Assembly: GCA_040757115.1 (NCBI GenBank)
Contig: JBFLYA010000128.1
Coordinates: 1 to 10,980, forward strand
Direction: 5' to 3'
DNA length: 10,980 nt
Source of the DNA: a bacterium
GTDB lineage: Bacteria; UBA9089; CG2-30-40-21; SBAY01
The notes beneath the pieces are model-generated. The model searched no databases, had not been told where the DNA came from, and saw only the letters and a list, made by a program, of their open reading frames with translations. Of this stretch, positions 105 through 10,980 are shown piece after piece (the first letter of the stretch is position 1; the number at the start of each line of letters is the position of its first letter). The position numbers were made by a program, and so were the translations under genes.

Positions 105-446
105 TTATAACTTTTCGGGAATTTAGGTTATTAGTCAAAACTTTATTCAGAGTGGATAAGTAAAAAAAATCCCAAATCCCAAGCACCAAATCTCAAATAA
201 ACACCAAATTCCACATACCAAAAAGCGAATTAGAGATTAGTGAATTAGAGATTAGATTTTACTAATTCGCTAATTCGCTTAATTCACTAATTCACTAAAT
301 GGAATTTGGAATTTGTGATTTGGAATTTCATAGCCCTATCTATGTCAAATTTCGATTAATAAGTGCTATAATGCGTGTCCATTTGTGACTAATTTCCTTA
401 ATTCTCTGTGAACTCGGTGCCTCTGTGGCTGAATGCTTACACATCT
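105..446. other. Repeat-filled intergenic gap between the partial gene and the PIN toxin gene
   Basis: No gene is supported here. The gap contains the fold-back repeat at about 167-330 and a 34-bp motif at 337-370 that recurs in diverged form at 1755-1789. It also has a GTG/CTCT-rich stretch at about 403-434 that resembles 1367-1397 inside element B (both read roughly CT-CTGTG...GTG...CTGTGG..GAAT). It lies 3' of both flanking genes, which converge on it, so the fold-back could serve transcription termination from either side. Confidence 0.6.
167..330. repeat. Imperfect fold-back (inverted) repeat with internal short tandem units
   Basis: The left arm has a CCAAAT-rich block (about 167-213) followed by two tandem 15-bp units, GAATTAGAGATTAGT at 227-241 and GAATTAGAGATTAGA at 242-256. 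The right arm mirrors these in reverse complement: CTAATTCGCTAATTCGCTTA and AATTCACTAATTCACTA across 262-297, then a GGAATTTGG-rich block at 301-329. The whole could fold into one long imperfect hairpin with a short loop near 257-260. It holds no plausible gene. A similar GATTTTGGGTTTTGGATTTT-type tract appears at about 9551-9577, so this sequence style is dispersed. It is probably a non-autonomous element or fold-back repeat of unknown family. Confidence 0.65.
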
Positions 447-857
447 TTACGATATTAAACTTATTCCCATCATTGGAAAATGACGATCAAACCCAAACGC
501 GTCATGAATGTTATAGCGTTGACACACAACAAAATTGGCACAATCAGTCAATGATAAGAGTGTACTTTCATATTGACGAAATACGGCGATCGATTCTTGA
601 AAAAGGTCGTGATCAATATACACCACGCGTAAAATGCCTGTTTTACTCGTCAAGGTGATAATATCCAGAAATCGAATGGCGATATGATGACTGCTATCAT
701 ACCTTAGTCGAGTCACGGTTTCGTCAAGAACATAATCTGTTGTGAGTAAATAGGCGCGTTGTTGCTTCAACCGGTTATAGAGCCGATTTGCCTCTTTATG
801 ATAGTGATCGTTACTATCGGTTAGAGCAATCCACGCTCCTGTATCGACAAAAATCAT
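447..857 (-). CDS. vapC: PIN-domain ribonuclease toxin (VapC-like)
   Basis: A 136-residue single-domain PIN protein, the usual VapC size. The family's metal-binding acidic residues are all present: D5 in the opening IFVDTGAWIAL strand, E46 in VLDETVTRL, D105 in SLTDCANF, and D124 in the final AFGFDRHF block. In this family the cluster binds Mg2+ or Mn2+ and cleaves RNA, commonly tRNA or rRNA. The start codon at 855-857 overlaps the stop of the upstream gene as ATGA, the typical translationally coupled antitoxin-toxin layout. Together the pair forms a type II toxin-antitoxin module in the cytoplasm. No catalytic residue is missing and no frameshift is seen. The family call is secure; the RNA target cannot be inferred. 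Confidence 0.88.
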   Translation of the reverse strand: MIFVDTGAWIALTDSNDHYHKEANRLYNRLKQQRAYLLTTDYVLDETVTRLRYDSSHHIAIRFLDIITLTSKTGILRVVYIDHDLFQESIAVFRQYESTLLSLTDCANFVVCQRYNIHDAFGFDRHFPMMGISLIS

Positions 858-1081
858 GCTGCACCCCTTGTATATAAAATCTTATTATGATTTACTGAGG
901 CATCCTCCTGATTGGTGTGACATAAGCCAATCATTTGATCAAGCAACGCATAGCCGTCAGTCTCTTCAGTGGGTTCGATCACTTCGATATCCACCCAAAT
1001 TTTCTGTTGTGGCATCGTTTTCACGATATCGATCATGGGAATATATAATCCATCCTCTCGTTTAATTGCTTCAACTTGCAT
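854..1081 (-). CDS. Probable antitoxin partner of the PIN toxin
   Basis: A 75-residue protein whose first 37 residues (MQVEAIKREDGLYIPMIDIV...IWVDIEVIEP) alternate short strands in a way that resembles swapped-hairpin AbrB/MazE-like or DUF2281-type antitoxin N-termini. The rest is charged and probably binds the toxin. The ATG at 1079-1081 has a good ribosome site (GGGAGGT, 7 bases upstream). The TGA at 854-856 overlaps the toxin ATG by 4 bp, which implies coupled translation and supports the pairing. Such antitoxins usually neutralise the toxin and repress their own promoter. The foldback element A begins only 36 bp upstream, so the promoter region has probably been altered by that insertion. 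The antitoxin role rests mainly on context; the DNA-binding fold is a tentative reading. Confidence 0.72.
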   Translation of the reverse strand: MQVEAIKREDGLYIPMIDIVKTMPQQKIWVDIEVIEPTEETDGYALLDQMIGLCHTNQEDASVNHNKILYTRGAA

Positions 1082-1110: not shown

Positions 1111-1140
1111 ATTATGGTAAGCGTTCAGGTGGTGTAACAA
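1111..1140 (-). promoter_or_regulatory. Possible sigma70-type promoter at the element A edge, upstream of the toxin-antitoxin pair
   Basis: On the minus strand, TTGTTA (1135-1140) and CATAAT (1111-1116) are separated by 18 bp. The -35-like hexamer lies inside the end of element A and the -10-like hexamer abuts the element's terminal GTAA. A start around 1103 would leave a leader of about 20 bases before the antitoxin ATG, with the ribosome site in it. This is a pattern match only; AT-rich DNA gives many chance matches. Confidence 0.35.
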
Positions 1141-1577
1141 AAGGAGATGTGGAGATTAAGGAGATAGGGAGATATTATTAAAAAAATTGGTAACTATTCA
1201 CCATTCACAATTTCTTCCCTAAATTTCCTTAATAATGGTGAATGGTGAATTGTCAATTGTGAATTGTGAATTATCACTCTTCACGGTGTCAAGCAAACCT
1301 GGCCCAAGAGTTCGATGCACCGCTATAGCGCATCCAATGACTCTATTCGATAATTCATCAAATTTCACTTCGTGCTCTCCGTACCCTTCGTGGTGAATAG
1401 TTACAAAAATTGAAATTAATAGAAACTAATAGAAATTTATGGAAATTTGTTGTTTTCCCCAATCAATTTCTACCTAATTTCTATAAGTTTCAATCTATTT
1501 CTATTATCTTATCTCCATATCACTCTTATCTCCTTATCCCCTTTCTTACACTTTTGATATATAGCCTGAACGGTTAC
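1117..1577. mobile_element. Fold-back MITE 'element A', copy 1, interrupted by element B
   Basis: The left end starts GTAAGCGTTCAGG at 1117 and the right end finishes CCTGAACGGTTAC at 1577. These are inverted ends with one mismatch over 13 bases. Behind them, arms of roughly 110 bp are imperfect reverse complements of each other (GGAGATTAAGGAGATA against TATCTCC...TATCTCCTTATC; AATAGAAACTAATAGAAAT against ATTTCTATAAGTTTCAATC). Without element B and the duplicated target bases, A would be 238 bp. There is no transposase and no plausible gene. Bases 1117-1189 are identical to 10858-10930, and 1405-1462 match 10923-10980 with one difference. The GTAA termini resemble those of the IS66 family. 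I see no clear target duplication around this copy (AAATTATG on the left, GAAAATTC on the right). Confidence 0.85.
1190..1404. mobile_element. 215-bp MITE 'element B' with perfect ends and target duplication, inserted in element A
   Basis: The ends are perfect 14-bp inverted repeats: GTAACTATTCACCA at 1190-1203 and its reverse complement at 1391-1404. The element is flanked by an exact 8-bp direct repeat, AAAAATTG at 1182-1189 and 1405-1412. The other copy of the host repeat has this octamer once (10923-10930) with nothing inserted, so it preserves the empty site. The interior has no gene. It includes GTGAAT/ATTCAC-rich sequence near the left end and a CGCTATAGCG palindrome near 1321-1330. 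GTAA ends with 8-bp duplications are the signature of the IS66 family, so B is best read as a non-autonomous derivative moved by such a transposase encoded elsewhere. Confidence 0.9.
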
Positions 1578-1934: not shown

Positions 1935-2306
1935 CTAATTTCCTTCTGCAACCATTTTTATGAAGTCTGTTGAGGTGAAAATACCGAGTGAACTTTTATC
2001 TTTTATGGTGATACGATGGAATTTATTGTCTGACATATACTTAGCCGCGGCTCTTGAATTCATTGTTTTTGCCTCTTCGACGCTAATTATTTTAAATTCT
2101 CTTTGCTCACAGAATTCTTTCAGATTTTGGTCTGACGGCTTATCATGTTCTGTAACTATCCCGAGAGTTTTACCTTCACGGTCAACAACAAACAAACAAC
2201 TTCGATTCAATTCTTTCATCCGTTGAAGGGCAAAATTGACGGTTCTATTCCAATCTACAGTCAGTAACGATTCAAATGTAGCGTAATCTGCGACAAATTT
2301 CTGCAT
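1935..2306 (-). CDS. Stand-alone CBS-pair protein, putative adenosine-nucleotide sensor of the Apr/Qmo operon
   Basis: A 123-residue protein made of one Bateman module and little else. The first CBS half has CLFVVDREGKTLGIVTEHD (residues 37-55) and the second HRITIKDKSSLGIFTSTDF (97-115). Both carry the G-h-x-T-x-x-D signature (G49-D55 and G108-D114) whose Thr and Asp contact phosphate and ribose of bound ATP, ADP, AMP or SAM in this family. No enzymatic or DNA-binding domain, signal peptide or membrane segment is visible. The ATG at 2304-2306 is preferred over one at 2327 because GGGAGGTG sits 5 bases upstream. That ribosome site overlaps the last codons of qmoC, and the gap is 2 bp, implying translational coupling. 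It is the last gene of the operon. A regulatory role in sulfate respiration is inferred from position only. Confidence 0.85.
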   Translation of the reverse strand: MQKFVADYATFESLLTVDWNRTVNFALQRMKELNRSCLFVVDREGKTLGIVTEHDKPSDQNLKEFCEQREFKIISVEEAKTMNSRAAAKYMSDNKFHRITIKDKSSLGIFTSTDFIKMVAEGN

Positions 2307-2308
2307 TT

Positions 2309-3400
2309 TTACACCTCCCGTTGACATTGTTTTGCATAAACCATAGCCGCTGTCCGATAAAGTAAATGAGCGAGTTTAGAATATGGGGCATAGATAAATA
2401 GGTAAAATACACTGACTAAATGGAGAAAGTAAATGGGATAAGCCAGGATGGTTATATTTGCCCATCGCGTAAATTGTGAAAGTATCCCGGTCAGGACAAC
2501 TACGGCAATGACAACAATGAGTGACCAGTCAAAGTAAGACCCTAAACCTGTCTTTTCCTTGTTTTTCAACCGGTTACCAATGACCAATATAATTCCAATA
2601 AGCAATGTGAGAGCACTGATATTGCCAATTATCTTTACTGGACTGAGTAATGGATAAGGGGATTCCTGTTTCAAGATATAGAGATAGAAAACGGCTAAAG
2701 CAGTTGTTATTGCCAGCCCAATAAATCCGTAAAAAACACCAAGATGGGCAATCGACCTGAGTTTGTTCACTTCGCATTTATTAAATCGGTTATGAGTTAA
2801 TATCTCAACAATTGTTGAAATAAGACTGGGAATTAAGCCTATCTTTGCATTTGGTCCAGATATATCTTTCCAATATCTGGTAATTCCCACACCAAAGACT
2901 ATTGCCGCAAATAATGCCACAGGTATAAAAATAGCATCAACATATTCCGTGGGCATAAACTTTGAAAAGATTATCTCGCCGGCAGGGATATTTAGATGAC
3001 CGCTAATTCCTAAAACAGCCAACAACAATATTACTGGAAAGGCAATCAGAAGTGGCACATATTTCACCTGGCTAACCATTTTACCCAAAAATTTTGGAAA
3101 AGAATAATGGGTGATAACCGCTTTGCGGATAGCGGCCATTACCTCACCTGGTTTTGCCCCTCGTGGGCAATAAACCGTACAGTCGCTACACTGGTGGCAA
3201 AGCCAGATATCCGGGTCAGCCAACAATTTATCTTTTAGTCCCCACTGTGCCCAAATCATCTCTTTGCGTGGAAATGGGTTGCCATCAGGGGACAATTTAC
3301 AGGTTACAGAGCAGGTGGCACACTGAAAACATTTTTTTAGAGAATCTCCGCCAGCACAAATTGTCTCGCGGATAAATTTTAAATCAGGTTTAATTAACAT
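2309..3400 (-). CDS. qmoC: QmoC, membrane haem b / Fe-S subunit of the quinone-interacting oxidoreductase
   Basis: A 363-residue fusion of an HdrC-like ferredoxin domain and an HdrE/NarI-like cytochrome b domain, the standard QmoC layout. Two [4Fe-4S] motifs are complete: C24-C27-C30-C34 and C68-C71-C74-C78 (the latter ending CPRG). About six hydrophobic segments follow, near residues 114-134, 153-173, 217-241, 255-275, 291-311 and 318-340. H219 (SIAHLGVFYGF) and H327 (YFLHLVSVFYLF) are likely haem ligands. In characterised Qmo complexes this subunit takes electrons from menaquinol and passes them to QmoA/QmoB. The ATG at 3398-3400 is chosen over that at 3410-3412, since GGAGGG (3405-3410) is placed correctly only for the downstream codon. 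It starts 48 bp after qmoB. A membrane subunit here distinguishes the operon from the qmoAB-hdrBC type. Confidence 0.95.
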   Translation of the reverse strand: MLIKPDLKFIRETICAGGDSLKKCFQCATCSVTCKLSPDGNPFPRKEMIWAQWGLKDKLLADPDIWLCHQCSDCTVYCPRGAKPGEVMAAIRKAVITHYSFPKFLGKMVSQVKYVPLLIAFPVILLLAVLGISGHLNIPAGEIIFSKFMPTEYVDAIFIPVALFAAIVFGVGITRYWKDISGPNAKIGLIPSLISTIVEILTHNRFNKCEVNKLRSIAHLGVFYGFIGLAITTALAVFYLYILKQESPYPLLSPVKIIGNISALTLLIGIILVIGNRLKNKEKTGLGSYFDWSLIVVIAVVVLTGILSQFTRWANITILAYPIYFLHLVSVFYLFIYAPYSKLAHLLYRTAAMVYAKQCQREV

Positions 3401-3448
3401 TTTTCCCTCCATTAATGGTCGGACAAGTCTGACTCGTTTGATGTTAAC

Positions 3449-5686
3449 TTAAAATCCCTTAAATGGATTTGGGCCTACCTTATCAATAGTTGCCATAAAA
3501 TCCTTAAATATTCCTGGTAACAAATCATATTCATTAATTGCAAGTTGAACCATTTTTACCCGGTCAGATTCAAGAGCCAATCTATTTAGCGTTTCCTGAA
3601 CCTTACCGAGCCGATAATTGGCTAATTCACTTCCTTTGACAAAGTGGCATTGATAGTCATCCCCATATTTACAGCCAATAAGAAGAATCCCATCAATTCC
3701 TTTTGATAAGGCATCTGAAATCCAGACAAGGTTAAAAGAACCAAGACATCTCACCGGGATAATCCGAATGAATGGGCTATATTCAAGTCGTTTAACCCCA
3801 GTCATATCCAGAGCCGGGATGGCGTCATTTTCACACATAAAGGCAAGCACTCGTGGTTTATTTTCAAATTCATCCGGCACGCTCACGGCTTTAAATATAG
3901 ATGAGATAATGTCAATCGAATAATTTTTAAAATTGATTATCCTTTCCGGACAGGCACCCATACAGGTCCCGCATCTTCGACATCGAGTAATATTTGGTAA
4001 AGGATTGAATTTCTCATCCTCATTAATTGCTCCAAACGGACATTCATCCGTGCATCTTTTACACTGGGTGCATCTTTGCATAAAAAAGTCGGGATAACTG
4101 CGGTCACTAACCCTTGGGTGAACTGCTTCGCCTTTACTGATTAATTCGATACATTGAATTGCCTTCAACGCCGCTCCACTTGCATCCTCTATACAGGCGG
4201 CAATATCCATTGGCTGACGCACACATCCTGCCGCATATATGCCCGTTCTCCGCGTCTCATAAGGAAAACAAATAAAATGTGAATCCGGAAAACCATACTT
4301 TAATTGGGGCAATTCCGGTCCTTGCCGATAGTCCAGATTCAGAATATCTGATTTAATGATGGGGTCTTGAGGCAGAGTTGGTTCTTCTTTTTTACAGGCT
4401 TCTTCCTGGCATTCTATCGTCTCTTTTTTTATCAGCCTTTCAATTGCGGTTGTTGGCACCATTCCTGTTGCCAGAACAACTAAATCGGCTTCAATAACCA
4501 TATCTTCGCCCAGCAATGTATCTTTAATCGTGATTGTTAGATTATTCCCATCTATAACTTCTACCCCAACGACCTCTCCTTTAGTTAAAAAAACGCCTTC
4601 ATCTTCTTGAGCCTTGATGTAAAAATCCTCATAAAGTCCCATTGTCCGCATATCCTTGTAAAATATGTAAGCCATTGCCTCCCGGTTTTGTTGCCGAACA
4701 TAGAGGGCTTGTTTAAGAGAGGTCATACAGCAATAGGTCGAACAATACGGCAGACGCTCTTTATCCCGCGAACCAGCACATTGAATAAAGGCAACATTTT
4801 TCGCCGGTTGACCATCTGACGGTCTGGTAATCAAACCCTTTTTAGCCAATTCCTCCATCTGAACATTGGTAATCACATTTGGCGATTTGCCAAAACCAAG
4901 ATATTCAAGTCCACTGGCATCATAAGGCTGGAATCCAGCGGCTAAAACTATTGCCCCAACCCGAAATTGGTTTGTCTTTTCATTTTGATTCACAGTAACA
5001 TCAAATAAACCAGGACCACCGGCAATCTTTTCTATTTTTGTCTCGGTATAAACCTTGATTCTCTGATTGGCAGAAATCTCTTTAATCATTTCGAGATGAA
5101 TTGGTATTTGAAGTTCCTGATATGGGGATTGGATAGGAAATTGTTTATGAAGTTTAGTCAGGAAACCACCCAGGTCTTTTTCTTTTTCAACTAAAATTAC
5201 TGTTTGACCTGCTTTTGCAGATTCAAGAGCCGCCGTCATCCCGGTTATACCACCACCAACGACTAAAATATCCCGACTTATCTCTGTTTCAGGTTGATAT
5301 GGGTCTAACAATTCTGTTTTTTGAGCCTTAACAATGCCCATTTTGAGATAATCTTCAGCCATCATTTGAGTATCTGGTTGATTTGGTGGCTGACACCAGA
5401 TAACCTGTTCCCGCAGGTTGACCCGCTCCATAATTTTATCGGTATCAAACGCAAATACATCCTGGTTGACCCGTGGAGAGCAACCCGCAATAACAATAGT
5501 ATTTATTCCATTCCCCTGGCAATCCTGATTAATTAATGCCAGACCATCTTGACTGCATAAGCTATGATGGGTTTTACAAACAGGGGTTTTGTATTCATTA
5601 ATTGCGACATTTGATAGTTTTTCCAGGTCAATAGCTTCACCAATACCACAACCTGAACACAAGTAAACACCTAATTTCTTTTCCAT
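3449..5686 (-). CDS. qmoB: QmoB, HdrA-like flavin/Fe-S subunit with C-terminal MvhD-like domain
   Basis: A 745-residue protein. Order of domains: an N-terminal HdrA-type cysteine region (C10, C13, C37, C44), an FAD-binding fold starting at GGGITG (144-149), the HdrA signature CAGSRD...PYCSTYCC (303-320), a long YRQGPELP...FPYETRR segment (453-480) ahead of the FAD-closing GIYAAGC (482-488), two [4Fe-4S] motifs (C539-C542-C545-C549 and C569-C572-C575-C579), and an MvhD-like domain from about 612 (C618, C647, C672, C680). It is a cytoplasm-facing partner of QmoA and passes electrons towards AprBA; its HdrA/MvhD make-up underlies proposals that Qmo may couple a second electron donor by confurcation. 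It begins 5 bp after qmoA, with its AAAGGA ribosome site in the qmoA tail. It is full length with no disruption. Confidence 0.96.
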   Translation of the reverse strand: MEKKLGVYLCSGCGIGEAIDLEKLSNVAINEYKTPVCKTHHSLCSQDGLALINQDCQGNGINTIVIAGCSPRVNQDVFAFDTDKIMERVNLREQVIWCQPPNQPDTQMMAEDYLKMGIVKAQKTELLDPYQPETEISRDILVVGGGITGMTAALESAKAGQTVILVEKEKDLGGFLTKLHKQFPIQSPYQELQIPIHLEMIKEISANQRIKVYTETKIEKIAGGPGLFDVTVNQNEKTNQFRVGAIVLAAGFQPYDASGLEYLGFGKSPNVITNVQMEELAKKGLITRPSDGQPAKNVAFIQCAGSRDKERLPYCSTYCCMTSLKQALYVRQQNREAMAYIFYKDMRTMGLYEDFYIKAQEDEGVFLTKGEVVGVEVIDGNNLTITIKDTLLGEDMVIEADLVVLATGMVPTTAIERLIKKETIECQEEACKKEEPTLPQDPIIKSDILNLDYRQGPELPQLKYGFPDSHFICFPYETRRTGIYAAGCVRQPMDIAACIEDASGAALKAIQCIELISKGEAVHPRVSDRSYPDFFMQRCTQCKRCTDECPFGAINEDEKFNPLPNITRCRRCGTCMGACPERIINFKNYSIDIISSIFKAVSVPDEFENKPRVLAFMCENDAIPALDMTGVKRLEYSPFIRIIPVRCLGSFNLVWISDALSKGIDGILLIGCKYGDDYQCHFVKGSELANYRLGKVQETLNRLALESDRVKMVQLAINEYDLLPGIFKDFMATIDKVGPNPFKGF

Positions 5687-5691
5687 AAATC

Positions 5692-6903
5692 TTATCCTTT
5701 TTGAATAGCCTTAAGTGCCGCTGAGGTAGCATCTTGAACTGATGAGGTAACATCTTGAGGTTTTTTCGCTACCCCTGCCGCATAAATTCCTTTTTCCGGA
5801 ATAATAAATCCATTTTTATCCTGCTGGATGAAATTTAAGCCTTGCCTGCCTGGTTCCATCCCGCAGGCTAAAACTACCAGGTCAACCCTTACCTTATTTT
5901 TATTTCCAGCCAGAATATCCTCCGCTTCAACAATCAATTCTCCGTTATCTTCCTCAACCGAGGCGACTTTGCCCTTGATTAATTTAACCTTTTCATCAGC
6001 CTGCACCCGATTATAAAAATCCTCATATTTACCCGGGGTGCGAATATCAATATAAAACATAAAAGCCTCTGACTCGGGGATACCTTCTCTCAGATAAGTT
6101 ATTTGTTTTAAAGAGGCAAGACAACAAACCGCTGAGCAATATGGCAGGTGGTTTTCATCCCGAGAGCCAGCACATTGGACAAAGGCAACCTTTTTTGGTT
6201 CTTTTTGGTCAGAAGGTCGCAGGATTTTACCGTTGGTTGGACCATTTGGTGCGGCAAGACGCTCCATCATCATATTGGTAATCACATCCTTGTATTTACC
6301 AAACCCAAGGTTATCAATCTTTGAGGCGTCGTAAGGTTGCCAGCCTGTCGCCACAACTATAGAACGGACATTAATTTGTTTTGTCTGTGGTTGCATCTCT
6401 AAATCAATTGCTTTGTATGGACAGGCATCCACACAAGAACCACATTTGATACAAACAGTATTGTCAATGACATATTTGTATGGAAATGCTAATTGATGGG
6501 GAAGATGAATGGTTTTGGTCTGGCTTAAGTTTAAATTAAAATCATCATTGCGGTCTGCTGGACAAACTTTAGCACATTCTCCACAGGCAGTACATTTTTC
6601 CGTAACAAATCGTGGATTAATCCGCAGAGTAACATCATAATTCCCCTCCTGACCACTAATTTTTTCTACTTCTGTCAGGGTAAAATACTTAATTCGGTTG
6701 TTTGTTTTAATTCGACGGAGGTTTATCTCCATTCCACAGTATGGTGGACAGAGTTTAGGAAAATAGCGATTCATCATCACCACTTTGCCGCCCAGATACG
6801 GCTTTTTTTCAATAAGCGTAACATTATAACCCGCTTCACCCGCTTCAACTGCGGTGGTTATGCCGCTGATTCCGCCACCAATTACCAGGATATCCTTTAA
6901 CAC
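5692..6903 (-). CDS. qmoA: QmoA, HdrA-like flavoprotein subunit
   Basis: A 403-residue flavoprotein from a GTG start. It opens MLKDILVIGGGISG (dinucleotide fold, glycines 9-14), then LCPPYCGMEINLRR (C52, C56), two [4Fe-4S] motifs (C104-C107-C110-C114 and C151-C154-C157-C161), the HdrA-family CAGSRDENHLPYCSAVCC block (244-261), and the FAD-closing GIYAAGVAKKPQDV near the C-terminus. With QmoB it forms the soluble arm of the Qmo complex that relays electrons from QmoC to APS reductase. The GTG at 6901-6903 is chosen because AGAGGTGA lies just upstream and the glycine motif then sits near the N-terminus as in relatives. A longer frame from 6969 would add 22 residues translated from an intercistronic hairpin, with no ribosome site. 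It follows aprA by 84 bp. Confidence 0.95.
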   Translation of the reverse strand: MLKDILVIGGGISGITTAVEAGEAGYNVTLIEKKPYLGGKVVMMNRYFPKLCPPYCGMEINLRRIKTNNRIKYFTLTEVEKISGQEGNYDVTLRINPRFVTEKCTACGECAKVCPADRNDDFNLNLSQTKTIHLPHQLAFPYKYVIDNTVCIKCGSCVDACPYKAIDLEMQPQTKQINVRSIVVATGWQPYDASKIDNLGFGKYKDVITNMMMERLAAPNGPTNGKILRPSDQKEPKKVAFVQCAGSRDENHLPYCSAVCCLASLKQITYLREGIPESEAFMFYIDIRTPGKYEDFYNRVQADEKVKLIKGKVASVEEDNGELIVEAEDILAGNKNKVRVDLVVLACGMEPGRQGLNFIQQDKNGFIIPEKGIYAAGVAKKPQDVTSSVQDATSAALKAIQKG

Positions 6904-6907
6904 TAGT

Positions 6908-6915
6908 TCACCTCT
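6908..6915 (-). promoter_or_regulatory. Ribosome binding site that sets the qmoA GTG start
   Basis: AGAGGTGA on the minus strand, with GAGG 7 bases before the GTG at 6901-6903. The alternative GTG at 6967-6969 has no purine-rich site at a proper distance, so this site decides the annotation. Confidence 0.7.
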
Positions 6916-6925
6916 TGAAGAGCTC

Positions 6926-6974
6926 AACGGGTGAGGTATCATAGGACATATATGTTTTATGTTCCCCACCCGTT
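6926..6974 (-). other. Inverted repeat in the aprA-qmoA intercistronic leader
   Basis: AACGGGTG (6926-6933) and CACCCGTT (6967-6974) are perfect 8-bp complements separated by 33 bases that include a small ACATATATGT palindrome. The structure lies just 3' of the aprA stop and ends ahead of the qmoA ribosome site. There is no U-run after it, so it looks more like an mRNA processing, stability or attenuation element than a terminator. The function is inferred. Confidence 0.5.
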
Positions 6975-6987
6975 AGCCATAAAATGT

Positions 6988-8913
6988 TTACTTTGGCACC
7001 AAATCCTTATGTGCCTTTTTGAATATCTCCCATTGAGCTGTCTTTGGGTCGTATTTCGAGTTGACAAAGCATTTCCAGTCATTATCATTAATCAGATTAA
7101 AATCTGACCGATAATAGAATCCTGGATATCGGCTTTCTTGTCTAAACAGGATATGTCGCAGATGAATCTCTGCGGTCCAGATACGATGATAATTTTCCCA
7201 ACATCTCATCAACTCATGCAGGTCTTTAGCGGCCATCTTTTTAGAATCTTCTTTAAGCATTTCAAGAAGGTTCAGTGCCGTTTCCAGCATAACTTTGTTA
7301 GTAATATAGTGAGTTTGGCAACCACCACCGTATTCATCCATAATCTTATTCAGACGAAACATTAACATTTTCGGTTTAATGTAATATGGGTTGACATCAG
7401 GGTCAACAGAATATCCTTTCTGATTCTCATAGTTAATGAACGGCAGGTAGATTTCATCCGCCAGTTCTCTTTTATCCTTAGTCACAGTTGGTGTAAAATC
7501 TTTACTGTCAAGGATAAATTTAATTGCGGCTTTACCTGCGATTCTACCTTCACAATGAGAGCCAGATGAGAATTTATGACCTGATGCACCAACGCCGTCG
7601 CCAGCTGTGAATAACCCTTGAACTGTAGTCATACGATTGTAACCCCATTGCCATTCTGCAGGAGCAATATCCTCCGGACCACTAACCCAAATTCCACTGC
7701 AACCTGAGTGTGAACCTAAGAGATATGGTTCTGTAGGCATCAGTTCAGACATATTCGTTTCTGGGGCAATATTCATCCCTGCCCAGAATCCCGCCTGACC
7801 AATACACATATCGAGGAAATCTTCCCATGCCTCTGATTCAAGTTCTCGACATTTCTTTGGCTCATTGTTATATTTGGCAAACAACTCTTTCATTGCTGTA
7901 GGTGTATCCATATAGACAGGTCCTCTACCTCTTCTCATCTCTTCAAGCATCTGATGATTTCGTAAACAGGTAGGAACTACTTTAGAACCACCATAGGGCA
8001 TATAGTCATTAAGCAGGTCTTTATTTTTTACTGTATAATCCTCCCCCATTGCGTTTAAGGCTTTTGCCTTGAATAATAAGAACCATGCTCCGACTGGACC
8101 AGCACCGTCTTTAAATCTGCACGGGACAAAGCGGTTTTCCATCATTGTTAGTTCTGCCCCAACCTGGGTGGCCATCGTATATGTTGAGCCAGCATTCCAG
8201 ATTGGATACCATGCCCGACCCATACCTTCGGCAGTTGATTGTCTTGGTCTAAAGATGTTTACCGCACCGCCACAAGCCATCAGAATCGCCTTAGCCCGAA
8301 AGATATAGATTTTATTTTCACGGACGCTAAATCCAACCGCACCAGCAATTCTATTTTGCTCTTTTTCGTCAAGCAAGAGTTTAACAATAAAAACCCTTTC
8401 ATAGATATTTTCCATACCCAGTGATGCTTTAGCCGCTTCCGCAACGATGGTTTTATAAGATTCACCATTAATCATTATTTGCCATTTACCGGTTCTGACT
8501 GGCTTACCACCTTTTTCAAGGGGAATTCCTTCACTGCCATGTTCTTTCCAGATTGGCAAACCCCATTCCTCATATCTATGAACTGTGTCGTCCACATGAC
8601 GGCCAACATCATAGATTAAATCATCGCGAACTACACCCATTAAGTCATTGGAAACCATCCGCACATAATCTTCGGGTGTATTTTCACCAAGATAGGTATT
8701 AATTGCGGAAAGTCCCTGGGCAACTGCCCCACTTCTTTCCAGAGCGGCTTTATCCACAAGTGTAATTTTCATTCCTTCAGGTGCCCATCTTTTAGTTTCA
8801 AACGCCGCTCCACAAGCGGCCATTCCACCACCTACAATCAAGAGGTCAGTATTAACTTCTACAATTTGTGGGTCTTTACAAAAATGAGATGTTTCTGCAG
8901 TAACTACAGACAT
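6988..8913 (-). CDS. aprA: APS reductase alpha subunit (FAD catalytic subunit)
   Basis: A 641-residue member of the fumarate reductase/succinate dehydrogenase flavoprotein family, normal AprA length. The FAD fold begins DLLIVGGGMAACGAA (23-37). The strongly conserved AprA block RFKDGAGPVGAWFLLFKAKA is at 266-285, GSHSGCSGIW at 400-409 holds the active-site histidine (H402, equivalent to His398 of the Archaeoglobus enzyme), and GDGVGASGHKFSSGSH (438-453) closes the FAD site. N72 and W236 lie where the APS-binding Asn and Trp of the crystal structure are expected. It reduces APS to sulfite and AMP in the cytoplasm through a sulfite-FAD adduct, fed with electrons by AprB. The ATG at 8911-8913 has AAGGAGGA 7 to 8 bases upstream. 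It follows aprB by 55 bp and precedes qmoA. Whether it runs reductively or oxidatively cannot be read from the sequence alone. Confidence 0.97.
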   Translation of the reverse strand: MSVVTAETSHFCKDPQIVEVNTDLLIVGGGMAACGAAFETKRWAPEGMKITLVDKAALERSGAVAQGLSAINTYLGENTPEDYVRMVSNDLMGVVRDDLIYDVGRHVDDTVHRYEEWGLPIWKEHGSEGIPLEKGGKPVRTGKWQIMINGESYKTIVAEAAKASLGMENIYERVFIVKLLLDEKEQNRIAGAVGFSVRENKIYIFRAKAILMACGGAVNIFRPRQSTAEGMGRAWYPIWNAGSTYTMATQVGAELTMMENRFVPCRFKDGAGPVGAWFLLFKAKALNAMGEDYTVKNKDLLNDYMPYGGSKVVPTCLRNHQMLEEMRRGRGPVYMDTPTAMKELFAKYNNEPKKCRELESEAWEDFLDMCIGQAGFWAGMNIAPETNMSELMPTEPYLLGSHSGCSGIWVSGPEDIAPAEWQWGYNRMTTVQGLFTAGDGVGASGHKFSSGSHCEGRIAGKAAIKFILDSKDFTPTVTKDKRELADEIYLPFINYENQKGYSVDPDVNPYYIKPKMLMFRLNKIMDEYGGGCQTHYITNKVMLETALNLLEMLKEDSKKMAAKDLHELMRCWENYHRIWTAEIHLRHILFRQESRYPGFYYRSDFNLINDNDWKCFVNSKYDPKTAQWEIFKKAHKDLVPK

Positions 8914-8941
8914 ATTCTTTTCCTCCTTATCTTAAATTATG

Positions 8942-8959
8942 GCAAGCAGGGATGCTTGC
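8942..8959 (-). other. Short stem-loop between aprB and aprA
   Basis: GCAAGCA (8942-8948) and TGCTTGC (8953-8959) form a perfect 7-bp stem with a 4-base loop in the 55-bp aprB-aprA gap. On the minus strand it is followed by the aprA ribosome site, not by a U-tract. It may stabilise or process the aprB 3' end, or tune aprA translation. The role is inferred. Confidence 0.6.
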
Positions 8960-8968
8960 ACTAGTGTA

Positions 8969-9403
8969 TTACTTTGCCGGGGTAGGCAGTGTTTTTCCGA
9001 CCTCGGTAAAAAAGTTTTGAGATTTAATATCATCCGCAGAGGGTTGTGCTTTTCCTTCATAAGGTTTAATCGACCCCTCTGGTGTAGTCCGAATAGGGAA
9101 CTTAAATCTCTTGATATTCCCATTACGGAATTTTATTGTCCACATAATCGAATCAGTCCCTCGTAAGGGAATAATGCTACCTCCCATTGGGACAATATCG
9201 GCATACGCCCTGATTTCTATTGCCTGTTGCGGACATATTTTTGCACAGGAATAACATTCCCAGCATTGCTCCGGCTCCTGATTGATTGCCTTGGTCTTTT
9301 CGTCATTCAATCTAAACAGGTCATTAGGGCAAATGTATTGACAGGCTGTTTTATCCTGTCCTTTGCAACCATCACATTTTTCTTTAATTACAAAACTTGG
9401 CAT
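8969..9403 (-). CDS. aprB: APS reductase beta subunit (two [4Fe-4S] ferredoxin)
   Basis: A 144-residue ferredoxin-like protein. It binds two [4Fe-4S] clusters through C10-C13-C21-C25 and C47-C50-C53-C57; the stretched spacing in the first group (C-x2-C-x7-C-x3-C) is typical of AprB. W48 sits exactly where Trp48 of the Archaeoglobus subunit bridges the clusters and the AprA flavin. Residues 65-100 give the beta-rich middle region, and the tail from about 105 (TTPEGSIKPYEG...) is the extension that wraps around AprA in known structures. It passes electrons from Qmo to the AprA FAD. The ATG at 9401-9403 has AAGGAGGT about 8 bases upstream. It lies 188 bp after sat, a gap occupied by a repeat, and 55 bp before aprA. 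No unusual feature. Confidence 0.97.
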   Translation of the reverse strand: MPSFVIKEKCDGCKGQDKTACQYICPNDLFRLNDEKTKAINQEPEQCWECYSCAKICPQQAIEIRAYADIVPMGGSIIPLRGTDSIMWTIKFRNGNIKRFKFPIRTTPEGSIKPYEGKAQPSADDIKSQNFFTEVGKTLPTPAK

Positions 9404-9425
9404 AAAATTTTACCTCCTTATTTTT

Positions 9426-9508
9426 GGTAATTGGTAACTGGTGAATGGTAATTAAATACCGTTCGGCTGAGTTCAGGACGAAGATATTTAACCAATTACC
9501 AATTAACC
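9426..9508. repeat. Fold-back repeat with a REP-like core between sat and aprB
   Basis: Outer arms are GGTAATTGG...GGTAATTAAATA (9426-9458) and TATTTAACCAATTACCAATTAACC-type sequence (9485-9508), which pair imperfectly. The centre, TTCGGCTGAGTTCAGGACGAA (9462-9482), forms its own hairpin (TTCG-CTGA against TCAG-CGAA). The core is much richer in G and C than the arms. It sits in the 188-bp gap that separates sat from aprBA and could attenuate or process the transcript. The family is unassigned. No strong promoter for aprB could be identified in the gap. Confidence 0.65.
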
Positions 9509-9591
9509 GATTATTTGCTTTTAGTTTCCTGAAACCCTATCTTTATTTTTGATTTTAGATTTTGGGTTTTGGATTTTTTTCATCACCTCCT

Positions 9592-10815
9592 CTATTTTTC
9601 TCCCTTTGCATGCTTATGTAATTTAATCTCTATCTTTTCCGCCTCGTCCAGTTTAGCATAATACTCTTTTAAAATCGCTAATACCTCAGGTCGGCTAAAG
9701 TGGTCTGGGACATCCTGATTTTCAGACAGGAGTTTTCGGAGCATAGTCCCGCTTAAAATCACCCGATACTGATTGTCATGAGGGCAGGTTTTCATTGAAG
9801 CCATACCATCACATTTGGTGCAATAGAAAGTATTATCGATTCTAAGTGGTTGAAGCAAAAGGGCATCTGATGGAATTTCATCAAAGATGTGGTGAGCATC
9901 AAAAGGTCCATAATAATTACCCACACCAGCGTGGTCTCGACCGACCAGGAGATGGCTACAGCCGTAGTTTTGTCTGAAAACGCCGTGGAGTAAAGCCTCG
10001 CGTGGTCCAGCATAACGCATCTCCATTGGATAAACCCCTTGAATACAGGTATCTTTGACAAAGTAGTGTTCTGCTAAGGTATTAATTGCTCTAACACGAA
10101 TATCAGCAGGTATATCTCCTGCTTTCAGTTTACCCACCAATTGATGAATAAATACGCCGTCGCAAACCTCAACCGCTATTTTAGCCAGATATTCATGAGC
10201 TCGATGCATCGGATTTCGTAATTGAAGAGCGGCTACTTTACTCCAACCTTTTTCTTTAAAAAGTTCTCTTGTCTGTGCTGGTCTCATATAAAGCTCACCG
10301 TATTCCTGTGGATAATGGAGTTCATTCAATACTTTTACCGCACCGGCTAAATTTACCATTTCCTGCGATATAACTTTATGAACCCCTGGATGCTCATGGT
10401 CAATAGTTTTAAAAACCTGTTTGCATTCATGTTCCTTATCAATTATGTATTTCTCCTCAATCTTCATTGTGCCCATTAATTCGCCGCTTTCCTCGTCAAT
10501 CAAAGCGACCTCTTCACCCTTTTTTAAACTATCTGCTTGACCTTCTGTGGTTGAAAGTGTAATAGGAATAGGCCAAAAAATACCATTTGTCATCATCATT
10601 TCATTGCAAACACCCTGCCAATCAGCTTTACCCATAAAACCGGTTAATGGTGTAAAAGCACCAATACCCATCATTATCAAATCAGATGTCTCTCGCGATG
10701 TCATCTTTATTTGAGTTAAAGTTTTGGCTTTCTTTTGCTCTTCCTTTAATTCATCACCCGTTAGCAACAACGGCTTTAATTCTTCACTCCCATGTGGTGC
10801 AATTAATTTTGACAT
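9592..10815 (-). CDS. sat: Dissimilatory-type ATP sulfurylase (sulfate adenylyltransferase)
   Basis: A 407-residue homo-oligomeric ATP sulfurylase without an APS-kinase domain. It forms APS and pyrophosphate from ATP and sulfate, the first step of sulfate reduction (or makes ATP from APS in the oxidative direction). Signature motifs are intact: [11 protein letters not shown] (198-208) for sulfate and [15 protein letters not shown] (266-277), GRDHAG (292-297), and SGTMLR (355-360). C332, C335, C344 and H346 form a zinc-site-like cluster of the kind seen in thermophile and dissimilatory enzymes. The ATG at 10813-10815 is preferred because AAGGAGGG lies about 7 bases upstream. A longer frame to 10881 would add 22 residues encoded partly by a transposable element. 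It is the first gene of the cluster; element A copy 2 begins 43 bp upstream of the start. Confidence 0.97.
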
Positions 10816-10822
10816 ATTTTTT

Positions 10823-10830
10823 CCCTCCTT
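10823..10830 (-). promoter_or_regulatory. Ribosome binding site that sets the sat start
   Basis: AAGGAGGG on the minus strand, 7 bases before the ATG at 10813-10815. It rules in the 407-residue form and against the extended frame reaching 10881. Confidence 0.8.
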
Positions 10831-10854
10831 AAATTGTTGATTTTTTAATTCGCA

Positions 10855-10881
10855 ATTGTAAGCGTTCAGGTGGTGTAACAA
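10855..10881 (-). promoter_or_regulatory. Weak promoter-like pair at the element A edge upstream of sat
   Basis: The same TTGTTA hexamer of element A (10876-10881) lies 15 bp from TACAAT (10855-10860), which spans the element-flank junction. The spacing is shorter than the 16-18 bp optimum, so this is only a possibility. The true sat promoter may be elsewhere in the element or beyond the window. Confidence 0.2.
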
Positions 10882-10980
10882 AAGGAGATGTGGAGATTAA
10901 GGAGATAGGGAGATATTATTAAAAAAATTGAAATTAATAGAAACTAATAGAAATTTATGGAAATTTGTTGTTTTCCACAA
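10858..10980. mobile_element. Fold-back MITE 'element A', copy 2, uninterrupted but cut by the window end
   Basis: It starts GTAAGCGTTCAGG at 10858. The first 73 bases are identical to 1117-1189, and the sequence then continues straight into what lies at 1413-1462 in copy 1, with one mismatch (10977 A against 1459 C). It therefore preserves the site that element B interrupted in copy 1. The window stops near the centre of the fold-back, so its right end is not visible. Orientation is the same as copy 1, and it lies 43 bp upstream of the sat start codon. Confidence 0.85.

What the first reader, a model, noticed from the sequence alone, without database searches (positions are those of the whole stretch)
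1182..1412. Nested MITE with perfect ends, 8-bp target duplication and its own empty site in the same window
Element B (1190-1404) has perfect 14-bp inverted ends and is flanked by AAAAATTG twice. The matching host repeat at 10858-10980 carries AAAAATTG once, uninterrupted. This is direct evidence of a transposition into a repeat. GTAA termini plus 8-bp duplications are known hallmarks of the IS66 family, so a non-autonomous IS66-type family can be proposed without any transposase in sight.
Basis: partly seen in the sequence, partly recalled or inferred. Interest (0 to 1): 0.75.

Follow-up and report, generated by a model that had tools for sequence, protein, structure and literature searches.

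The report
Nested IS66-type miniature transposon family
A short gene-less jumping DNA element sits inside another one in an uncultured sulfate-metabolising bacterium; comparison with a sister species shows that both families, whose ends match IS66-type transposons, jumped recently, which is a well-documented but ordinary kind of bacterial mobile element.

Summary
Element B (1190-1404) has perfect 14-bp inverted ends and AAAAATTG on both sides. The repeat it sits in (A) recurs uninterrupted at 10858-10980.

In the window's own genome B has at least 20 complete copies; 14 have a perfect 8-bp duplication and 3 have 7/8. Lengths of 208-236 bp step by 7 bp, a small tandem repeat. The sister species (about 97% identical in most flanks) carries clean empty sites for several copies, e.g. 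CTTCTAAC once versus twice.

The IS66 reading holds and can be narrowed. B's ends match those of single-gene IS66 (ISBst12-type) elements: 26 complete ones from many phyla have GTAACT[A/G][C/T]TCAG-type ends and perfect 8-bp duplications. A is a separate 237-bp IS66-type MITE whose ends match a broken IS66 element in the same genome.

B always lies at the same site and orientation in A. Four A::B loci lack the unit in the sister species, and one has an intact outer duplication (ACCTAATT). The A::B composite therefore probably moves as a unit.

No intact partner transposase was found, but contigs under about 3 kb read as N. New member of a known kind.

The parts
1190..1404 (+). Element B: 215-bp non-autonomous miniature transposable element (no ORF of 60 aa or more lies within it)
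1190..1203 (+). Left terminal inverted repeat of B, GTAACTATTCACCA
1391..1404 (-). Right terminal inverted repeat of B, GTAACTATTCACCA on the minus strand
1182..1189 (.). Left copy of the 8-bp target duplication AAAAATTG
1405..1412 (.). Right copy of the 8-bp target duplication AAAAATTG
1196..1211 (+). Start of the 7-bp tandem unit (TTCACCA / TTCACAA) next to the left end; copies of B differ by whole 7-bp units (208, 215, 222, 229, 236 bp)
1193..1253 (.). Subterminal imperfect hairpin of B (arms 1193-1212 and 1234-1253); whole element folds better than shuffles (z -3.6, single-stranded DNA)
1117..1577 (+). Host repeat A, a 237/238-bp MITE interrupted by B (461 bp with B and the duplication)
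1117..1129 (+). Left end of A, GTAAGCGTTCAGG
1565..1577 (-). Right end of A, GTAACCGTTCAGG on the minus strand
10858..10980 (+). Second copy of A without B (related empty site), cut off by the contig end; AAAAATTG once at 10923-10930

Best explanation
B is a non-autonomous miniature element (MITE) of the IS66 type, single-ORF ISBst12-like branch. A DDE transposase supplied in trans by such an IS66 element recognises the GTAACTATTCACCA ends and inserts B by cutting the target with an 8-bp stagger, which repair turns into the 8-bp duplication. A, the host repeat, is an independent IS66-type MITE with the other end class (GTAAGCGTTCAGG / GTAACCGTTCAGG). B inserted into an A copy at AAAAATTG, and the resulting A::B composite then spread mainly as one unit, B riding as passenger between A's ends. 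Shown: ends, duplications, copy families, empty sites in the sister species, end match to IS66 elements. Inferred: the enzyme step, trans action, and movement of A::B as a unit.
For: 1) 20 complete B copies in the genome: 14 with 8/8 and 3 with 7/8 duplication at different targets; perfect matches 1 each for lengths 5-7, none for 9-11. 2) 582 end matches (up to 2 mismatches) against 59 for the reversed control; up to 1 mismatch 223 against 3. 3) Sister species G001: single CTTCTAAC where G000 has CTTCTAAC-B-CTTCTAAC (L003/L173); near-clean empty sites for L005/L170 and L012/L169; shared B at L019/L174. 4) 26 complete single-ORF IS66 elements with GTAACT[A/G][C/T]TCAG-type ends and perfect 8-bp duplications; 18 of 50 ends tabulated begin with B's exact GTAACTATTCA. 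5) In the phylum, IS66 frames or remnants lie next to GTAACTATTCAGC (L086, own-genome L065), GTAACTATTCACCC (L093) and GTAACTACTCAGG (L084). 6) A: at least 12 copies with perfect 8-bp duplications; own-genome IS66 L061 has A-type ends GTAACCGTTCAGG. 7) A::B at C64+C306 is flanked by ACCTAATT on both sides; G001 has ACCTAATT once and no A; C311, C105 and C350 also lack A::B in G001. 8) ISDge4 (ISBst12 group, ends GTGACTACTCAGCA / GTAACTGCTCAGCA) was seen to transpose with an 8-bp duplication (PMC12898284).
Against: No intact IS66 transposase with B-type ends was found in the genome: only remnants, and L061 has two stops. The short contigs fetched (62 of 63, all of about 2.1 kb or less) read as N, so a collapsed IS copy could be hidden. 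The IS66 elements found inside this phylum lack clear 8-bp duplications themselves. IS66 ends usually have G at position 12 where B has C (47 of 50). Three of 20 B copies and about half of the A copies have mismatched flanks, best explained by recombination between copies or by assembly errors. Different B haplotypes inside A would also fit independent insertions.
Confidence: 0.9

Rival explanations
1. B hits A again and again at the same site: AAAAATTG in A is an insertion hot spot, and the A::B loci are independent insertions rather than copies of one composite.
For: B copies inside A carry different haplotypes, some sharing variants with B copies elsewhere (L013 with L009, L014 with L011).
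Against: All A::B copies have the same site and the same orientation, while other B targets share no consensus. At four A::B loci the sister species lacks A altogether, and no locus with plain A in one species and A::B in the other was found. The variants can arise by 7-bp slippage and conversion: orthologous C332/C327 A::B copies themselves differ.
Confidence: 0.2
2. B and A are not mobile; they are dispersed intergenic repeats spread by recombination, with boundaries mimicking transposons.
For: No intact transposase found; some copies have mismatched flanks.
Against: Exact ends, exact 8-bp duplications at unrelated targets and single-copy targets in the sister species.
Confidence: 0.02
3. 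B is moved by a transposase of another family that also makes 8-bp duplications.
For: Several IS families make 8-bp duplications (general knowledge), and no partner element was found intact in the genome.
Against: The first 11 bases of B's end are shared exactly with many complete IS66 elements, and IS66 frames lie next to such ends in this phylum.
Confidence: 0.06

Closest known systems
IS66 family, ISBst12 group (single-ORF IS66), e.g. ISDge4 of Deinococcus geothermalis (PMC12898284)
   Same: Ends GTAAC-T-(A/G)-(C/T)-TCAG(C/G), 8-bp target duplication; the same end class as B.
   Different: B has no transposase gene, is 208-236 bp, has C instead of G at end position 12, and holds a 7-bp tandem repeat.
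Classical IS66, e.g. ISPa75/ISPsko1 (ends GTAAGCGTCCGG / GTAACCGTCCGGG; PMC12888890)
   Same: A has the same left/right asymmetry GTAAGCG / GTAACCG.
   Different: A has TTCAGG where these have TCCGG, carries no gene, and the related own-genome element L061 is a single-ORF type without room for tnpA/tnpB in its span.
Bacterial MITEs in general (MITEPsy1, MITEAba12, MITECca01 with 169 copies; PMC3189936, PMC6382973, PMC9769881)
   Same: Short, gene-less, inverted ends shared with an IS, target duplication, many copies, often nested in other mobile elements.
   Different: The passages I read link MITEPsy1, MITEPsy2 and MITECca01 to IS5-like, Tn3-like and IS982-type elements; no IS66-derived MITE turned up in the held papers.
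BrickBuilt MITE of Porphyromonas gingivalis (PMC4596501)
   Same: A MITE that contains a tandem repeat.
   Different: 23-bp unit and other ends; B's unit is 7 bp and overlaps its end sequence.

Membership tests
MITE (non-autonomous miniature inverted-repeat element) | Short, without a transposase gene, with terminal inverted repeats | tested here: met
   215 bp, 14/14 inverted ends, no ORF of 60 aa or more inside
MITE (non-autonomous miniature inverted-repeat element) | Multiple dispersed copies with the same boundaries and target duplications | tested here: met
   20 complete copies, 14 with 8/8 and 3 with 7/8 duplications
MITE (non-autonomous miniature inverted-repeat element) | Insertion into previously unoccupied sites | tested here: met
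   Empty orthologous sites in G001 for L003, L005, L012 and for A::B at C64/C306
IS66 family, ISBst12-type (as non-autonomous derivative) | GTAA-type ends like those of complete elements of the group | tested here: met
   GTAACTATTCA shared exactly with 18 of 50 ends of complete IS66 elements; position 12 differs in 47 of 50
IS66 family, ISBst12-type (as non-autonomous derivative) | 8-bp target duplication | tested here: met
   B. 26 complete IS66 relatives:
IS66 family, ISBst12-type (as non-autonomous derivative) | An autonomous IS66 partner with the same ends in the same genome | tested here: inconclusive
   Remnants only (L065 GTAACTATTCAGCAC; L063); short contigs read as N
IS66 family, ISBst12-type (as non-autonomous derivative) | Mobilisation by an IS66 transposase in trans | not testable with these tools
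   Needs an in vivo or in vitro transposition assay
   TnpA/TnpB families were not searched; the matching relatives have one long transposase frame

The most novel reading that the evidence does not exclude
A MITE within a MITE forms a stable composite (A::B) that is propagated as a unit by the outer element's IS66-type transposase, while the inner element remains separately mobile through a second IS66 lineage, so two non-autonomous families ride on each other in one genome.
Probability: 0.6. Interest if true: 0.45.

Novelty: new member of a known kind. Interest (0 to 1): 0.35.

Why it matters
It gives a clean, dated example of IS66-type MITEs: two families with distinct end classes, matching IS66 elements, 8-bp duplications and orthologous empty sites in a sister species. 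IS66 transposition, and the ISBst12 group in particular, is poorly characterised (PMC12898284), so short defined ends plus a set of filled and empty sites make the end requirements and the trans action directly testable. The copy numbers also help to explain why assemblies of such genomes break into many contigs at these repeats.

Tried and rejected
I fetched 63 short contigs (C352, C400-C460, C462) to look for a collapsed IS66 copy and found nothing. One search then showed that every one except C352 reads only N, because those stretches are withheld, so that negative result is void and I did not try further. Rfam: no match in 1000-1700. Plasmids: only two 41-43-bp chance-like matches; viral contigs: none. 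The window's own insertion could not be compared in G001, because the orthologous contig ends at window position 1664. Recurrent insertion into A was considered and rated less likely than movement of A::B as a unit. A 2,078-bp pairing in L187 (AGTAC ends, 7/8 duplication) was rejected as chance.

Full report
Observation. B runs from 1190 to 1404; both ends read GTAACTATTCACCA inward (14/14), and AAAAATTG stands at 1182-1189 and 1405-1412. The surrounding repeat recurs at 10855-10980 with 97-99% identity and without the insert. Strictly this is a related empty site, a sister copy of the repeat, and it is cut off by the end of the contig.

Is B a family? The window is contig 128 of a 4.32-Mb, 462-contig assembly. 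A search with B gave about 22 near-complete copies plus fragments. Twenty distinct copies are complete with both flanks readable; 14 have perfect 8-bp duplications, mostly of unrelated sequences (AAGGGATC, CTTCTAAC, TTTATTTC, CTTTCCTC, GCCGAGAG, CATTAAAT, ATTGGGCT and others) and 3 have 7 of 8. Lengths 5, 6 and 7 give one perfect match each and 9 to 11 give none. The ends alone occur 582 times with up to 2 mismatches against 59 for the reversed control, and 223 times against 3 with up to 1 mismatch, so B is one of many elements that share these ends. B copies are 208, 215, 222, 229 or 236 bp long; the alignment shows that whole 7-bp units (TTCACCA/TTCACAA) next to the left end, and a similar unit inside, come and go.

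Host repeat A. With B removed, A is 237-238 bp and begins GTAAGCGTTCAGG and ends with GTAACCGTTCAGG reversed. At least 40 close copies were listed in each of the two species (the listing limit). Among copies with both ends, at least 12 carry perfect 8-bp duplications (for example GAAATAAG, AAAAAGTG, AACTTTAT), and about half have mismatched flanks. A is therefore a MITE family of its own. The window's copy has no outer duplication.

Sister species. G001 (same genus; flanks 94-99% identical) has orthologous flanks for 13 of 16 loci tested. Where this genome has AATCTATCTTCTAAC-B-CTTCTAACTTAGATAATG, G001 has AATCTATCTTCTAACTTAGATAATG. L005/L170 and L012/L169 are near-clean empty sites; at L002 and L008, B together with its surrounding insert is missing; B is shared at L019/L174. 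So B moved both before and after the two species separated.

A::B. B lies in A at the same site and in the same orientation at about nine loci. Four testable loci (C64, C105, C311, C350) lack the whole A::B in G001. For C64 the other half of the locus is contig C306: the two overlap by 117 identical bases inside A, the outer flanks are ACCTAATT on both sides, and G001 has ACCTAATT once. One A::B locus is shared (C332 and G001 C327, flank CCCACAAG). Since other B targets have no common sequence, repeated independent hits on one 8-bp site in one orientation are unlikely, and movement of A::B as a unit is the simpler reading. B haplotypes inside A are mixed, which I ascribe to 7-bp slippage and conversion; independent insertions remain possible.

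Which transposase? In this genome five PF03050 (IS66) matches were found. L061 is a nearly complete IS66 element, 1,563 bp between GTAACCGTTCAGGTA ends, that is, A-type ends, with two in-frame stops. L065 is a remnant beside GTAACTATTCAGCAC, and L063 is a decayed relative of L093 in genome G014, where an IS66 frame stops directly before GGGTGAATAGTTAC, the reverse of GTAACTATTCACCC. L084 (GTAACTACTCAGG ends) and L085 (GTAACCGTTCAC ends) are intact IS66 transposases in related genomes (Pfam PF03050 and NCBIfam NF033517).

A scan of one genome per species with an alignment of the B-type IS66 proteins gave 80 loci. In 26 the element is complete, with GT-starting inverted ends of the GTAACT[A/G][C/T]TCAG kind and perfect 8-bp duplications; most have one long transposase frame. 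Of 50 ends tabulated, 18 begin with exactly B's GTAACTATTCA; at position 12 the family has G in 47 of 50 and B has C. The published ISDge4, placed in the ISBst12 group, has ends GTGACTACTCAGCA and GTAACTGCTCAGCA and made an 8-bp duplication when it jumped (PMC12898284). Classical IS66 ends GTAAGCGTCCGG and GTAACCGTCCGGG (PMC12888890) resemble A's two ends.

Limits. No intact transposase with B-type ends was found in this genome. Short contigs that I fetched to look for one read only N except C352, so the negative search of them means nothing. The IS66 elements within this phylum have no clear duplications of their own. Trans mobilisation was not tested and cannot be with these tools. Organism names are not shown for the window's genome; the window also carries sat, aprBA and qmoC, so it comes from a sulfur- or sulfate-metabolising bacterium.

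Verdict. B is a new MITE family of a known kind (ISBst12-type IS66). No IS66-derived MITE appeared in the held papers, but the library is partial and ISfinder was not searched, so priority cannot be claimed. The nested composite is the most interesting aspect.

Noticed in passing
window 117-449: Another dispersed repeat of about 325 bp that ends with GTAAGCATTCAGCC reversed at 440; dozens of copies in the genome and inserted at one locus in the sister species (L177). Probably a third IS66-like MITE family.
   Followed up: partly
window about 1602-1789: A further dispersed repeat with about ten copies in the sister genome (CCCATAGGGACAATATATCGG...); the G001 contig orthologous to the window ends inside it.
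   Followed up: no
window 1935-10881: Sulfate activation and reduction cluster on the minus strand: sat, aprB, aprA, two HdrA-like flavoproteins in the place of qmoAB, qmoC, and a CBS-domain-like protein (the last three named by eye except qmoC).
   Followed up: partly
window 447-1081: A possible PIN-type toxin and small antitoxin gene pair directly upstream of A (by eye); no NCBIfam match and no match in the sister genome at DNA level.
   Followed up: no
G007 and G015 (relatives): Two relatives outside the family hold 120 and 152 matches to B's end; in G007 nearly all listed are GTAACTACTCACCA, suggesting independent expansions of related elements.
   Followed up: no
L140, L144, L107, L109, L083 (A copies): A copies are interrupted by other insertions at other positions, so A is a frequent landing place for several elements.
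   Followed up: no
L011, L014, L016: B copies whose two flanks do not match; in L014 one flank is A and the other is unrelated, as expected from recombination between B copies or from a misassembly.
   Followed up: no
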